Shown piece by piece: positions 3,981-8,021 of a stretch of 43,512 nt of DNA. The notes beneath the pieces are model-generated. The model searched no databases. It was not told where the DNA came from and saw only the letters and a list, made by a program, of their open reading frames with translations. Source of the DNA: Lachnospiraceae bacterium (GTDB taxonomy: Bacteria; Bacillota; Clostridia; Lachnospirales; Lachnospiraceae). The stretch lies in the NCBI GenBank assembly GCA_030524705.1, contig JAUNGD010000026.1:1-43512 (forward strand). The letters run 5' to 3'. Made by a program: the position numbers and the translations under genes. The first letter of the stretch is position 1, and each line of letters begins with the position of its first letter.

Positions 3981-5567
3981 CTATCTTCCAAATTCTGAGA
4001 GTATCAGTCCCTCGTTTCTGTCAAGCACCATCCCCACGGACCAGCTATTGACAAACAGCAGCAGCGGACGGTCCTTCAAATCCTTGATCTTCTTCATGTC
4101 TGAGGTTCCCACAATCTTATTCAGGTCAATCTCCTCATTCTCGATCCAGCGGATGTGCTCATAGGGCAGGGTTTCCAGTCGAATATCCACATTATATTCA
4201 TTTTCCAGACGGTATTTCAACACGTCAAACTGAAGAACGCCGACGACTCCGACGATAATTTCCTCCATACCGGTATTGTATTCCTGGAAAATCTGGATCG
4301 CACCCTCCTGGGCGATCTGATTGATGCCCTTGACGAACTGCTTCCGCTTCATCGTATCCAGCTGCTTGACCCTCGCAAAATGCTCCGGCGCGAAGGTAGG
4401 AATGCCTTCGTATGCAAACTTCTTCCCCGGCATACAGATCGTATCGCCAATGGAAAAAATGCCCGGATCAAATACACCGATAATATCTCCGGCGTAGGCC
4501 TCGGACACGATGTGCCGTTCCTGAGCCATCATCTGCTGCGGCTGGGAAAGACGCTGCTTTCTGTCCCCCTGTACGTGATAAACCTCCATACCCGCGTCAA
4601 ATTTGCCGGAGCAAATACGCATAAAGGCGATCCTGTCTCTGTGGGCCTTATTCATGTTTGCCTGGATCTTGAACACGAAGGCAGAAAAATCCTCCTCCAT
4701 CGGGTCAATTACACCGCAGTCCGCAGTCCTGGGCAGCGGTGAAGTCGTCATCTGAAGGAAATGCTTCAAAAAGATCTCCACGCCAAAGTTTGTAAGAGCA
4801 GAGCCGAAAAATACCGGGGACAACTGCCCCTTGCTCACCAACTCCTGGTCAAATTCAGCAGAGGCTCCGTCCAGAAGCTCGATCTCCTCCAGCAGAGTTT
4901 CTTTATTCTGCGCGCCGATAAACTCCTCCAGCTCCGGTGCATCCACATCTATCTCCGTAGCCACCCCGGCCTTCGTTCCCTTCTGGGTATCGGTAAAGGT
5001 GGTCACCTTCCTGCTCGCCCGGTCATAGACACCCTTGAAATTCTTTCCTGAGCCAATCGGCCAGTTGATCGGGCAGGTGGCAATTCCCAGCTCCTTCTCA
5101 ATGTCATCCAGCAGCTCAAAGGTGTCGTTGGCATCCCGGTCCAGCTTATTAATAAAAGTAAAAATCGGAATATGGCGCATCACACATACCTTAAACAGCT
5201 TTCTCGTCTGCGCCTCCACGCCCTTCGATGCGTCGATCACCATTACCGCGGAGTCCGCCGCCATCAGCGTACGGTACGTATCCTCCGAGAAATCCTGATG
5301 TCCCGGCGTATCCAGAATATTGATACAGTATCCGCCGTAATTAAACTGCAATACGGAAGAAGTGACGGAAATACCTCTCTCCTTCTCAATCTCCATCCAG
5401 TCTGACACGGCATGTCTCGCCGTGGCCTTTCCTTTGACAGAGCCTGCCAGATTGATGGCTCCGCCGTAAAGCAGGAACTTCTCGGTCAGTGTCGTTTTAC
5501 CTGCATCCGGGTGTGAAATGATGGCAAAGGTCCGCCGCTTCGTAATCTCTTCTTTTATATTACCCAC
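3981..5567 (-). CDS. prfC: Peptide chain release factor 3
   Basis: RF3 is a GTPase that recycles RF1/RF2 from the ribosome. G-domain motifs are clear: AIISHPDAGKTTLTEK (P-loop), GISVTSSV (switch I), DTPGHQDFSEDTYR (G3, the DFSEDTYRTL extension is diagnostic of RF3), INKLDRD (G4). The 528 aa length is right. The GTG at 5567 has GGAGG eight bases upstream; the longer reading from a TTG at 5582 overlaps that ribosome site and is less likely. It is apparently monocistronic on the minus strand. Confidence 0.95.
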   Translation of the reverse strand: MGNIKEEITKRRTFAIISHPDAGKTTLTEKFLLYGGAINLAGSVKGKATARHAVSDWMEIEKERGISVTSSVLQFNYGGYCINILDTPGHQDFSEDTYRTLMAADSAVMVIDASKGVEAQTRKLFKVCVMRHIPIFTFINKLDRDANDTFELLDDIEKELGIATCPINWPIGSGKNFKGVYDRASRKVTTFTDTQKGTKAGVATEIDVDAPELEEFIGAQNKETLLEEIELLDGASAEFDQELVSKGQLSPVFFGSALTNFGVEIFLKHFLQMTTSPLPRTADCGVIDPMEEDFSAFVFKIQANMNKAHRDRIAFMRICSGKFDAGMEVYHVQGDRKQRLSQPQQMMAQERHIVSEAYAGDIIGVFDPGIFSIGDTICMPGKKFAYEGIPTFAPEHFARVKQLDTMKRKQFVKGINQIAQEGAIQIFQEYNTGMEEIIVGVVGVLQFDVLKYRLENEYNVDIRLETLPYEHIRWIENEEIDLNKIVGTSDMKKIKDLKDRPLLLFVNSWSVGMVLDRNEGLILSEFGR

Positions 5568-5703
5568 AGTATTTTCCTCCAACTGTTTTATCCTTGCCTA
5601 TTCTATCAAGGTTGGGAAAAGCTGTCAACGACCTGCCGGTGGATTTTTCAGGGATGGCCGGATACCCGGTTATTAGAGAAGAGTATTGGGTACTCGGACG
5701 CAA

Positions 5704-5841
5704 TGCTCGTGTGCGGTAAAGTATCACAAGAATTTGATTGATCGCAGCCCTGCTATTCCGTAAAGATAAAGGGAACTATATAGAAAATCGTTGGATAGCA
5801 TGATATACTTAACCCAATAACTGAGAGACAAATCGGGAGTT
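5704..5841 (+). repeat. Conserved 5' module, copy A
   Basis: Roughly 80 percent identical to 6530-6668 by eye. Shared blocks include GGTAAAGTATCACAAGAATT, CAGCCCTGCTATT, TAGAAAATCGTTGGA and AGAGACAAATCGGGA. No ORF lies inside it. The block GACAAATC (5827-5834) is exactly complementary to GATTTGTC at 6377-6384 on the far side of the gene, so the gene may sit in the loop of a long-range stem. Confidence 0.8.
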
Positions 5842-5918
5842 GTTAAAGACCCAATGTTACGATGGCATGATAAGCTTAATTTATGTCAGACGATAAATGA
5901 GAATATGGAGATAAAAAT

Positions 5919-6371
5919 ATGAGTAAATACACATATATCACTTTAAAAGACAGACCTCAATTAAAGGAACGAGCAGCTGCATGGTTTCATAGTAAATGGG
6001 AGGTGCCACAAGAAGCTTATCTTGAATGTATGGAAGCTTATCTCAATAACGAAACTGGCTATGGCTGGTACCTTTGCCTAGATGAGGATAAAGTTGTAGG
6101 AGGTCTTGGGGTAATAGAAAATGATTTTCATAACAGAAAAGACCTTACTCCTAATGTTTGTGCAGTATATACAGAAAAAGAATATCGCTGTAAAGGAATT
6201 GCAGGACATCTCCTTGATATTGTTGTAAATGATATGAAATCCAAAGGGATAACACCACTCTATTTAATAACCGACCATATAGGGTTCTATGAAAGATATG
6301 GTTGGGAATTTTTGTGCATGGTTCAGGGCGATGATAACCCTGACATGACAAGAATGTACATTCACAGATAA
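5919..6371 (+). CDS. GNAT family N-acetyltransferase (cargo of unit A)
   Basis: A 150 aa acetyl-CoA-dependent acyltransferase of unknown substrate. The GNAT fold is visible: GWYLCLDEDKVVGGLGVIEN (beta strands 2-4), NVCAVYTEKEYRCKGIAGHLL (motif A; the usual R/Q-x-x-G-x-G/A is CKGIAG), and the C-terminal LITDHIGFYERYGWEF. The ATG has GGAG eight bases upstream. The gene is clearly richer in AT than the flanking modules and the neighbouring chromosome, which suggests separate acquisition. It is the only ORF in its unit and is oriented the same way as the next cargo gene. Confidence 0.85.
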   Translation: MSKYTYITLKDRPQLKERAAAWFHSKWEVPQEAYLECMEAYLNNETGYGWYLCLDEDKVVGGLGVIENDFHNRKDLTPNVCAVYTEKEYRCKGIAGHLLDIVVNDMKSKGITPLYLITDHIGFYERYGWEFLCMVQGDDNPDMTRMYIHR

Positions 6372-6376
6372 ATTCA

Positions 6377-6529
6377 GATTTGTCGGGTAAATAGCAAAGC
6401 CGGCCGGGCCAGCGGGCGTTCAAGATGACTGGGCTTCGCCCGCCTCCCCACCCGGTTTTACAGGTAGGCATCCAAGGGGTGACAGCAAGGAATGCTGCTG
6501 CCCCTTGATACTTCTTTACCCTGCACCAA
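6377..6529 (+). repeat. Conserved 3' module, copy A
   Basis: Begins six bases after the GNAT stop. Shares with 7471-7634 the blocks TCGGGTAAATAGCAAA, GCCAGCGGGCG, CAGGTAGGCA, CCAAGGGG and TTGATACTTCTTT, ending CACCAA. The pairing AGCAAAGCCGG with CCGGTTTTAC has compensating base changes in copy B. A second hairpin CAAGGGG...CCCCTTG encloses TGACAGCA/TGCTG. It probably also serves as a transcription terminator. Confidence 0.8.
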
Positions 6530-6668
6530 TGCTCAGATGTGGTAAAGTATCACAAGAATTTGATAGACAACAGCCCTGCTATTTCGTAAAAATAAAGGGG
6601 AACGATGTAGAAAATCGTTGGAAAAGATGATATAGTTAACCCAAGTAATCAAGAGACAAATCGGGATT
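6530..6668 (+). repeat. Conserved 5' module, copy B
   Basis: Second copy of 5704-5841. A local hairpin AACGAT..ATCGTT (6600-6621) and a CCCT/AGGG pairing are possible here. Together with 6377-6529 this explains the whole 334-base stretch between the two cargo genes, which has no other gene. Confidence 0.8.
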
Positions 6669-6705
6669 GACCGCTGTAGTAGATGTTTTAGAGGAGACGT
6701 TAGAT

Positions 6706-7461
6706 ATGGATGCTTTAAATGATTTGCTTAAAAGTTTTGTCACACAAAGTAAAAATATATTAGGAGATAATTTGATTGGGATTTATCTTCATGGCTCTGC
6801 TGTTATGGGATGCTATAATGAGAAAAAAAGTGATATTGATTTGTTAGTTGTAGTAAAGGAAACTATTCCAAACAATGTAAAACATCGCTTCATGGATATG
6901 GTTGTAGAATTAAATACATATGCTCCTCCAAAAGGAATCGAACTAAGCATTGTTAAAAGAGGGGTATGCAATCCGTTTGTTTATCCGACACCTTTCGAAT
7001 TGCACTTTTCTATTGCACATTTAGAATGGTATAAAACCAATCCTTTAGATTATATTGATAAAATGAAGGGAACAGATAAAGATCTGGCGGCTCATCTTAC
7101 TATTATTTATCACAGGGGGAAATGTCTTTATGGAAACGATATCAAAGATGTCTTTGGAGCAGTCAGTAAAGAAGACTACTTTGATAGTATTTGGAGTGAT
7201 ATTGAGGAAGCTGAAACGGAAATAATGGATAATCCCACTTACATTATTCTAAACTTATGTAGAGTATTAGCATACAAAAAAGAAGAACTTATCCTGTCAA
7301 AACAGGAAGGTGGTAAATGGGGAATATGCAATGTCCCTGAAAAGTATCAAACTTTAATAGTACAGGCACTGGATGAATATTTATCTAATAAATCAACAGA
7401 ATGGGATGAAAATAATGCCCATGAATATGCTGCATATATGATAACACAGATAAGCAATTAG
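6706..7461 (+). CDS. Aminoglycoside-type nucleotidyltransferase (ANT/DUF4111 family; cargo of unit B)
   Basis: A 251 aa protein with the nucleotidyltransferase signature LHGSAVMGCYNEKKSDIDLL (GS, then DxD), as in spectinomycin/streptomycin adenylyltransferases of the ANT(9)/ANT(3'') group, and a helical C-terminal domain (ILNLCRVLAYKKEELILSKQEGGKW) also typical of that group. It would transfer AMP from ATP to a hydroxyl, but the substrate cannot be told from sequence. The ATG at 6706 has GAGGAG nine bases upstream; an upstream in-frame TTG at 6667 lies within the conserved module and is unlikely. AT-rich like the GNAT cargo, and in the same orientation. Confidence 0.82.
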   Translation: MDALNDLLKSFVTQSKNILGDNLIGIYLHGSAVMGCYNEKKSDIDLLVVVKETIPNNVKHRFMDMVVELNTYAPPKGIELSIVKRGVCNPFVYPTPFELHFSIAHLEWYKTNPLDYIDKMKGTDKDLAAHLTIIYHRGKCLYGNDIKDVFGAVSKEDYFDSIWSDIEEAETEIMDNPTYIILNLCRVLAYKKEELILSKQEGGKWGICNVPEKYQTLIVQALDEYLSNKSTEWDENNAHEYAAYMITQISN

Positions 7462-7470
7462 ATAAATTAA

Positions 7471-7634
7471 AGTTTATCGGGTAAATAGCAAACCCGGCCA
7501 AGCCAGCGGGCGGTCAATATGAACGGCTCTCCGAGCCGACTACAGCCCCGCCCGGCTTTGCAGGTAGGCAGCCAAGGGGCGACAGTAAAAAAGTGCTGCC
7601 GCTCGTTTTTTGATACTTCTTTGCCCTTCACCAA
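7471..7634 (+). repeat. Conserved 3' module, copy B
   Basis: Second copy of 6377-6529, with AGCAAACCCGG pairing with CCGGCTTTGC. The internal hairpin around 7573-7610 is less perfect than in copy A. Confidence 0.78.
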
Positions 7635-7637
7635 GAG

Positions 7638-8021
7638 TCAGGAAATATCGCAGCTGTCTATACTGCCGAGCTCCGGGTTGCCGTCGAGACTCTGGGTGTT
7701 CAGCGTCCTCCGGTGCAGTCTCTCGGCCTCTGACTGCCTCAGAATATAGTCCTTGATCTCCTTTGCATTTTTGATATGCATGATGCGAAGGTCCGGATCG
7801 GTCACGTCGCTGCTGAAGCAGTGTACCGTCCCCAGCCCGAAGATCCGCTCCAGCAGGCTTGTCTCCAGACGCACATCCACAATTTTGTACATGTAGCAGT
7901 CGTTCTCCACCCGCTTTAAAAATCCTGCGTTTACTGTGATAATCTCCTCTGAGACCGTGTATTTCGTAAAGGTCCAGGGCAGCCCAAGAAACGGCCACCT
8001 CTTTTTTTCTGTATATGCCAT
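7638..8021 (-). CDS. Bacterial PH-domain (YdbT/bPH_2-like) protein
   Basis: 127 aa. The core FTKYTVSEEIITVNAGFLKRVENDCYMYKIVDVRL, followed by LLERIFGLGTVHCFSSDVTDPDLRIMHIKNAKEIKDYI, matches the bacterial PH fold family, in which a small beta-barrel domain is followed by a short helix. No membrane segment is present, so it is a cytosolic single-domain form. AGGAGG precedes the ATG. The last residues (NPELGSIDSCDIS) end four bases from the edge of cassette-like unit B, so the native C-terminus might have been altered by that insertion. Function unknown. Confidence 0.75.
   Translation of the reverse strand: MAYTEKKRWPFLGLPWTFTKYTVSEEIITVNAGFLKRVENDCYMYKIVDVRLETSLLERIFGLGTVHCFSSDVTDPDLRIMHIKNAKEIKDYILRQSEAERLHRRTLNTQSLDGNPELGSIDSCDIS

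What the first reader, a model, noticed from the sequence alone, without database searches (positions are those of the whole stretch)
5704..7634. Tandem cassette-like units: conserved 5' and 3' modules around unrelated resistance-type genes
Two abutting units share ~138 bases before and ~155 bases after their genes at roughly 75-85 percent identity by eye, yet the genes are unrelated (GNAT; ANT-type nucleotidyltransferase). Both start TGCTC and end CACCAA, with CAA also before the first. The genes are AT-rich single ORFs in the same orientation, like integron cargo. However, there is no integrase, no GTTRRRY core, and the conserved part is far longer than an attC site. This may be a mobile gene-cassette system mobilised in trans. 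Inference: modules mark mobility and/or form an RNA that carries the ORF.
Basis: partly seen in the sequence, partly recalled or inferred. Interest (0 to 1): 0.87.

Follow-up and report, generated by a model that had tools for sequence, protein, structure and literature searches.

The report
Recombinase-free gene cassettes in tandem
Two genes in a gut bacterium sit in small, matching DNA wrappers that look like cars of a train pulled by a known antibiotic-resistance mobile element, which would be a way to move single genes without each carrying its own enzyme.

Summary
In detail: two abutting units (5704-6529, 6530-7634) share 5' and 3' modules at 83% and 74% identity around unrelated genes. 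The left end is that of IME_Rho_tet-type integrative mobilizable elements (large serine recombinase, often inserted in Maff2 genes): 119 or more public stretches carry it and six complete 7.9-12.4 kb copies were examined. Small recombinase-free units like the window's were found in four genomes, single or tandem, with unrelated cargo, some of it shared with larger elements. Their right end differs from the element's own. It scores like the left half of a target site (CCC-N6-AA), and the DNA to the right of six units supplies the mirror half. So a unit reads P'...B: left junction attL-like, right junction attB-like again. Inference: units are enzyme-free cars that couple in front of an element inserting at their right end, leave with it, and stay when it leaves alone. 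A changed P arm, moved in trans, is the main rival. No integron, intron or guide-RNA element was found by the tests made. Nothing was tested at the bench. Verdict: a new variant of cis-mobilizable tandem elements.

The parts
5690..5703 (+). genomic left half-site (B) ending in the AA core, left of unit 1
   Evidence: read; weak B-score -0.1 for 5690-5701; control 12-mers before AA in the window: mean -4.1, sd 3.8
5704..5763 (+). left end (P' arm) of unit 1, starts TGCTCGTGTGCGGTAAAG
   Evidence: 51 of 60 bases identical to unit 2; homologous to the left ends
5764..5841 (+). shared promoter-like/leader part (TAGAAA-17-TATACT at 5781-5809; ...GAGAGACAAATCGG)
   Evidence: the promoter scan as a whole finds no more than its shuffles (7 against 7.2), so this rests on conservation between units
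5919..6371 (+). cargo 1: GNAT acetyltransferase, 150 aa
   Evidence: PF00583 44.7 bits
6377..6506 (+). 3' module of unit 1: structured, hairpins
6507..6529 (+). right end of unit 1 (B-type half-site), GATACTTCTTTACCCTGCACC-AA
   Evidence: B-score 3.31 / 3.44, P-score -14.7
6530..6589 (+). left end (P' arm) of unit 2
6590..6666 (+). promoter-like/leader part of unit 2 (TAGAAA-17-TATAGT at 6608-6636)
6706..7461 (+). cargo 2: AadA/ANT-like nucleotidyltransferase, 251 aa
   Evidence: PF13427 106.1 bits
7471..7611 (+). 3' module of unit 2
7612..7634 (+). right end of unit 2 (B-type half-site), GATACTTCTTTGCCCTTCACC-AA
   Evidence: B-score 2.02 / 2.17, P-score -18.8
7635..7646 (+). genomic right half-site (B'), GAGTCAGGAAAT; with 7612-7634 an attB-like site
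   Evidence: mirrored B-score 5.62

Best explanation
The units are recombinase-free gene cassettes that belong to the attachment-site system of IME_Rho_tet-type integrative mobilizable elements. Each has the element's P' arm at its left end (TGCTCATGTGYNRTAAAG...), a cargo gene, the element's structured 3' module, and at its right end a target-type (B) half-site ending in the AA core. Shown by sequence: the shared left end, the shared 3' module, shared cargo, insertion at the same kind of target site, tandem order, and no IME_Rho_tet-like recombinase among the serine recombinases found in the four cassette-bearing genomes. Inferred: each left junction is attL-like (B-AA-P') and each right junction attB-like (B-AA-B'), so an incoming element can insert at the right end of a cassette array. 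The composite can then leave by attL x attR recombination between the leftmost cassette's junction and the element's right end. If the element excises alone, it leaves the cassettes behind with a restored target, which is the state of the window.
For: (2) Six complete elements (L150, L151, L153, L155, L157, L165; 7.9-12.4 kb) have this left end and a last ORF ending 88-90 bp before the right end; PMC12904643 reports 81-90 bp for IME_Rho_tet. The L155 ORF is a large serine recombinase and L155 has a relaxase. L151 carries a Tet(M/W/O/S)-type protein (1246.6 bits, cut-off 1100) and L153 a very similar ORF. (3) Right ends of 12 cassettes average a B-score of 3.30; real targets average 3.28 leave-one-out (a slightly larger matrix); 14 right ends score -1.0 to -27 as P arms. 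(4) Right flanks of 6 cassettes average 5.46 on the mirrored B matrix (1.98 to 7.16), control -4.59, 0 of 20000 random sets as high; the matrix was made from left flanks only. (5) P-type right ends are followed by DNA other than a left end in 14 of 14 examined (part of the listing was cut); B-type right ends are followed by another left end in 8 of 14. (6) Cargo is shared with loci of IME-type module order, in which the recombinase was not examined: XRE gene of G397 87% identical to L040/L056/L075/L078/L117/L121; XRE gene of C111 79% identical over 152 aa to L045. (7) P-type right ends occur in 3 of 47 genomes of the genus, reversed-pattern control 0; one keeps a recombinase C-terminus 96% identical over 51-52 aa.
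Against: No array with a complete, recombinase-bearing element to the right of a B-ended cassette was seen; the nearest, L043, is a MNT/HEPN cassette followed by a 5.1-kb P'...P element without a recombinase ORF. The B-score alone does not separate the two kinds of end: 3 of 10 IME-type ends also reach 2.0 or more (L150, L155, L043), though their mean is near 0; and the IME-type ends were in the training set of the P matrix, so their P-scores of 15-20 are not independent. TACTTCTTTA is shared by B-ended and P-type right ends, so the B-type end may be a changed P arm. Single right-end scores are modest: 0.25% to 20% of control 12-mers score as high, and the ends are related, not independent. 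Left flanks are uneven: window -0.1, L077 8.1, L097 4.3, L207 1.8, L141 -3.9, and -10.4 for the G397 XRE cassette, whose left end is uncertain. The core is not always AA (L160 GA, L264 CA). Right flanks of two IME-type elements score low (L043 -1.0, L033 1.4). B-ended cassettes are rare: the junction pattern is in 0 of 390 other genomes of the class, and of 299 others in the family of G397 three have 3-mismatch hits that do not look like cassettes.
Confidence: 0.58

Rival explanations
1. Ordinary non-autonomous mini-elements: the right end is a variant P arm, cut together with the left end by a serine recombinase supplied in trans; each cassette moves as its own circle.
For: TACTTCTTTA is shared by cassette and IME right ends; B-scores of 3 of 10 IME-type ends overlap those of cassettes; small P'...P elements without a recombinase ORF exist (L160 2.1 kb, L033 2.8 kb); no close helper found in the same genomes.
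Against: Cassette right ends carry CCCTG in the register of the target half-site, and their mean B-score equals that of real targets; no recombinase of those examined has such a right end within 400 bp of its stop.
Confidence: 0.25
2. Remnants: cassettes are decayed mobilizable elements that lost everything after the 3' module and no longer move; arrays only record repeated insertions.
For: Some copies are damaged (C132 lacks about the first 50 bases of its left end; the G398:C21 junction has lost bases).
Against: The right end is conserved over units with different cargo in four genomes, several are compact units with intact ends, and target sites differ, so copies have moved since the right end arose.
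Confidence: 0.12
3. An integron-like system in which a cassette circle (B-AA-P' junction) inserts directly into attB by an unusual attL x attB reaction.
For: It would give exactly the junctions seen and needs no coupling. Integrases of IMEs may be less strict than phage ones: the recombinase of Tn4451 is said to integrate and excise without a directionality factor (PMC5704250 passage).
Against: Serine integrases are said not to recombine other pairings of sites (abstract of PMC3783163).
Confidence: 0.06
4. An IS1111/IS110-type element with a guide RNA in the 3' module, moved in trans by its transposase (subterminal inverted repeats with 7- and 3-base tips).
For: Layout of the ends (7 and 3 bases outside an inverted repeat), the comparison being recalled from memory; structured 3' module.
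Against: No IS110 (PF02371) match in the own genome; complete elements with the same left end have a serine recombinase instead.
Confidence: 0.01

Closest known systems
IME_Rho_tet (PMC12904643; sections 12 and 20 and passages read)
   Same: The complete elements seen here have its layout: recombinase stop 88-90 bp from the right end, Maff2 target in most of the copies examined, tet ribosomal-protection gene in two copies, relaxase. The window units share their left end.
   Different: Window units have no recombinase or relaxase, are 0.8 and 1.1 kb, carry other cargo, and have a different, target-like right end. The sections read do not mention such cassettes; the partial elements there are tet genes linked to one or both TIRs.
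Cis-mobilizable elements (CIMEs) and site-specific accretion (PMC5704250, passages)
   Same: No integration or transfer genes, att sites kept, tandems, mobilised by an element inserting into the att site next to them.
   Different: CIMEs are described there with attL and attR; here the right boundary is attB-like (B-AA-B'), and the window units are single-gene sized.
Tandem ssrA islands of Dehalococcoides (PMC3146451, passages)
   Same: Tandem islands, 15 without integration module, serine recombinases, possible cis-mobilisation by accretion.
   Different: A 20-bp direct repeat at one host gene; no dispersed single-gene cassettes in the passages seen.
Integron gene cassettes (recalled)
   Same: Single-gene units in tandem, same orientation, no own recombinase.
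   Different: No GTTRRRY at the boundaries; some cassettes carry a promoter-like sequence; the sites are those of a serine-recombinase system.

Membership tests
IME_Rho_tet | serine recombinase ending 81-90 bp before the 3' boundary | tested here: not met
   window units have none; complete elements with the same left end: 88-90 bp in 6 of 6
IME_Rho_tet | 5' terminal repeat | tested here: inconclusive
   left end homologous to that of the complete elements; the paper's TIR letters are in a figure and were not seen
IME_Rho_tet | 3' terminal repeat (P-type right end) | tested here: not met
   cassette right ends score -1.0 to -27 on the P matrix, IME-type ends 15-20, the latter being in its training set
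IME_Rho_tet | relaxase and mobC | tested here: not met
   each window unit holds one gene
CIME (cis-mobilizable element) | no integration and no transfer genes | tested here: met
CIME (cis-mobilizable element) | flanked by attL and attR | tested here: inconclusive
   left junction attL-like; right junction attB-like rather than attR
CIME (cis-mobilizable element) | mobilised in cis by an accreted element | not testable with these tools
   no composite with a recombinase-bearing element seen; needs experiment
integron cassette | attC site with GTTRRRY core | tested here: not met
   by reading: boundaries are TGCTC...CACCAA
integron cassette | IntI in the genome | not tested
   tyrosine integrases were not searched for
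self-splicing intron / Rfam RNA | match to a covariance model | tested here: not met
   no match up to E = 5 in 5500-7800
IS110/IS1111 | DEDD transposase in the genome | tested here: not met
   PF02371 not found in the own genome (88.3% complete); 4 of 14 control genomes ring

The most novel reading that the evidence does not exclude
A gene-cassette system of gut Clostridia built on serine-integrase site polarity: each cassette is P'-cargo-B, so any number can be chained, every chain ends in a regenerated attB, and only an element that couples at that end can carry the chain away as one composite. This would be a train-like counterpart of the integron, with one shared engine and cassettes that carry no enzyme.
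Probability: 0.4. Interest if true: 0.82.

Novelty: new variant of a known kind. Interest (0 to 1): 0.62.

Why it matters
Integrons are the standard answer to how bacteria stockpile single mobile genes. If the site polarity read here is right, the attachment-site system behind much tet(W)/tet(32) spread in gut bacteria also moves single genes of other kinds without each carrying an enzyme, and does so by a simple rule (P' in front, B behind) that can be tested with short DNA sites. It also shows that left ends of IME_Rho_tet type open loci with far more than tetracycline resistance: a GntR regulator with an ABC transporter, a nitroreductase with a MATE pump, XRE regulators and, in an array next to such a left end, a MNT/HepT-like pair.

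Tried and rejected
IS1111/IS110 guide-RNA cassette: the 7/3-base tips suggested it; rejected because the own genome has no PF02371 match and complete elements have serine recombinases. Self-splicing intron: no Rfam match. Integron: no attC-like boundary by reading. Helper in the same genomes: 29 PF07508 matches in G000, G397, G398 and G399; an ORF was taken for 28 of the 29 and compared with the IME recombinases, the best being 48% identical, and none has either right-end type within 400 bp of its stop apart from one weak match (L228). Plasmids and phages: no blastn match. Right-end pattern in the family: outside the own genome 38 hits with 2-3 mismatches, against about 46 for the reversed-pattern control by my count of the table. 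GNAT relatives near left ends in L023, L128 and L138 look like neighbouring genes, not cargo. RNAalifold on the 3' modules gave a poor consensus (covariation term 0.08). A structure that I named does better (9 of 21 pairs with changes on both sides, 0 of 500 shuffles), but it came from the same sequences, and with the partners slid by +3 columns the covariation score is nearly as high (0.141 against 0.145, with 3 such pairs). That alignment held 18 of the 26 modules collected, trimmed by hand; the 8 left out were one false hit, three truncated ones and four similar to ones kept. One Maff2 regular expression found 0 of 121; a simpler one in the same call found 34. Literature: no title or start of abstract listed (no paper) and 87 describes recombinase-free cassettes with such ends; apart from the five papers quoted, only these listings were seen. 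PMC13239906 (mini-IME of Lysinibacillus) was seen as a listing only.
Full report
What is there. Two units abut between prfC and a bacterial PH-domain gene. Their 5' modules match in 116 of 140 alignment columns and their 3' modules in 122 of 164; shuffles reach at most 44% and 41%. The genes between them are a GNAT and an AadA-like nucleotidyltransferase, the latter well below the cut-offs of the resistance families it matched. Seven genomes of the same genus hold both flanks on one contig, with 6 to 424 bases between the matched parts and no 1.93-kb insert (G785, G786, G792, G794, G799, G802, G805; the left-flank matches in G792 and G805 are weak, E 0.003 and 0.0002). The intergenic DNA is too diverged to show the empty junction base by base.

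The modules are not confined to this place. In the own genome further copies lie on C132, C111 and C45, the last two at tandem junctions near contig ends. By their titles they are mostly gut Clostridia, with a few bins labelled Bacilli, Spirochaetes and one cyanobacterium, where contamination is possible. Of 121 left ends, 34 stand in one Maff2-type context by pattern; after removing similar ones, 69 different left flanks remain.

Complete elements. In six copies (L150, L151, L153, L155, L157, L165) the left end opens a 7.9-12.4 kb element whose last ORF ends 88-90 bases before a right end of the type ACTTCTTTATCRCACATNAGYA. In L155 that ORF is a large serine recombinase (Resolvase, Recombinase, Zn ribbon, DUF4368) and there is a MobA/VirD2-type relaxase. 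L151 carries a tetracycline ribosomal-protection protein, and L153 a very similar ORF. These features agree with IME_Rho_tet (PMC12904643; sections 12 and 20 read): 10.7 kb, relaxase, one serine recombinase, boundary 81-90 bp after its stop, MAFF2 targets. Three of the six (L150, L155, L157) show no ribosomal-protection ORF among their ORFs of 150 aa or more on either strand; L165 has an MFS gene on the opposite strand whose relative in L072 is Tet(40) (910.8 bits, cut-off 800). The paper's search was keyed on ribosomal-protection genes and could not report the three. Cargo lies between the left end and a conserved structured 3' module, which in many loci is followed by a sigma-factor-like ORF named by eye.

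The small units. Window-type units, with the 3' module running straight into a short right end, were found in four genomes: G000 (window x2, C132, C111, C45), G397 (an XRE cassette followed by a SpoIIM-protein cassette; one more on C9), G398 (one on C32 and a damaged junction on C21) and G399 (DUF1697 followed by a kinase-like gene; AbrB-like with DUF998) (families by Pfam, the kinase, the AbrB-like gene and the G397 XRE by eye). Two further B-ended units precede other elements in L043 (MNT/HepT-like pair) and L141. The G397 XRE gene is 87% identical to a gene of six loci with the IME-type module order, and the C111 XRE gene 79% identical over 152 residues to that of L045. Part of the 5' module, a promoter-like TAGAAA-17-TATAST and the leader ...GAGARACAAA, is shared by six checked cassettes with different cargo (window x2, C132, L077, L097, second G399 cassette), and by eye by L207; by pattern it is in 2 of the 121 left-end loci (L077, L097).

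Half-site types. A matrix of 12 positions was made from dissimilar left flanks (68, 65; tandem cases left out). It shows A at -14, CCC around -11 to -9, then T/G and G; AA stands at -2,-1. Cassette right ends carry CCCTG or close to it in that same register and score 3.30 on average (12 ends; 3.2 for 14 ends), as real targets do when tested leave-one-out (3.28), and score -1.0 to -27 as P arms. Ten IME-type right ends score 15-20 as P, but they were part of that matrix; as B they score -1.7 to 3.6, three of them 2.0 or more, so the B-score separates the kinds only on average. The mirrored matrix, which never saw a right flank, gives the right flanks of six cassettes a mean of 5.46 against -4.59 for control 12-mers after AA in the window; 0 of 20000 random sets reach it. 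So the cassettes stand at targets of the same recombination system; and, on the balance of the scores, each brings a target-like half to its right end.

What follows. Left junction B-AA-P' corresponds to attL; junctions between cassettes are the same; the right-hand junction B-AA-B' is attB-like. The abstract of PMC3783163 states that attL x attR needs a factor and that other pairings do not recombine (passages), so a cassette circle (B-AA-P') should not insert by itself; the recombinase of Tn4451 is described as less strict about the factor (PMC5704250 passage). An element that inserts at the right end of a cassette array makes a proper composite, bounded by the leftmost attL and the element's attR; and the element can leave alone, which restores attB and leaves the cassettes. 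This is accretion as described for CIMEs (PMC5704250) and proposed for tandem ssrA islands (PMC3146451), with a different right boundary. As expected, IME-type right ends are not followed by a left end in the 14 examined, while 8 of 14 cassette right ends are (a fifteenth, G398:C21, is damaged). That ratio is inflated, since several tandems were found through the left end or through a junction pattern.

How cassettes could arise (inference). In L141 a left end follows a 3' module and a terminator-like hairpin tail, GCTGCTTCTTTGCCTTGGGACAC. If an element inserts into such an internal site of another element and then leaves with the other's right end, a P'...B unit remains. The shared TACTTCTTT block of cassette right ends fits descent from one such event, but equally a changed P arm, which is the main rival.

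Helpers. No IME_Rho_tet-like recombinase was among the serine recombinases found in G000, G397, G398 and G399 (28 of 29 compared, best 48% identity); the own assembly is 88.3% complete. IME-type right ends occur in 3 of 47 genomes of the genus, reversed-pattern control 0, one with a recombinase C-terminus 96% identical over 51-52 residues; the other loci end at a contig end before the gene.

The 3' module. Both window copies fold somewhat better than shuffles (z -2.3 and -1.7). On 18 modules a three-helix structure that I named has 9 of 21 pairs with changes on both sides (0 of 500 shuffles), in the second and third helix only; with partners slid by +3 the covariation score is nearly as high, though with 3 such pairs. 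It is probably a conserved, terminator-like structured end; there is no support for an RNA that carries the ORF.

Rarity. The tandem-junction pattern was found in 1 of 391 genomes of the class, the own one, and of 300 genomes of the family of G397 in G397 itself, plus three 3-mismatch hits that do not look like cassettes. In 397 genomes of the own family the right-end pattern matched with fewer than 2 mismatches only in the own genome; the 2-3-mismatch hits elsewhere are no more frequent than those of the reversed pattern. B-ended cassettes therefore look rare, although the left ends are common.

Noticed in passing
L043:904-7051: A MNT nucleotidyltransferase / HepT-like (HEPN) toxin-antitoxin-type pair is cassette cargo, next to what looks like a group II intron end (by eye); the following 5.1-kb P'...P element carries an ABC exporter and a DDE transposase but no recombinase ORF.
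   Followed up: partly
L114 (reverse strand, starting at base 7213 of that strand): A left end runs after about 84 bases straight into the 3' module, with no gene between, and then into a truncated second left end: an 'empty' cassette.
   Followed up: no
L141:246; G000:C45 end (L242); L043:904: A second left-end subtype (..TAAAGAAGC..) occurs in the same arrays and may belong to a sister recombinase.
   Followed up: no
L162 and L109: Left-end-like sequences in the opposite orientation lie a few kb from another left end, suggesting nesting.
   Followed up: no
L148 (viral contigs): A contig classed as viral ends just after a window-type left end with the start of the shared promoter-like region.
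   Followed up: no
L198 (G399:C151): The DUF1697 cassette stands next to DNA that itself begins a very similar DUF1697 reading frame (by eye).
   Followed up: no
loci L029-L147: Left ends of IME_Rho_tet type open many loci with cargo other than tet ribosomal-protection genes, wider than the published tet-based definition; most cargo was named by eye, some by Pfam.
   Followed up: partly
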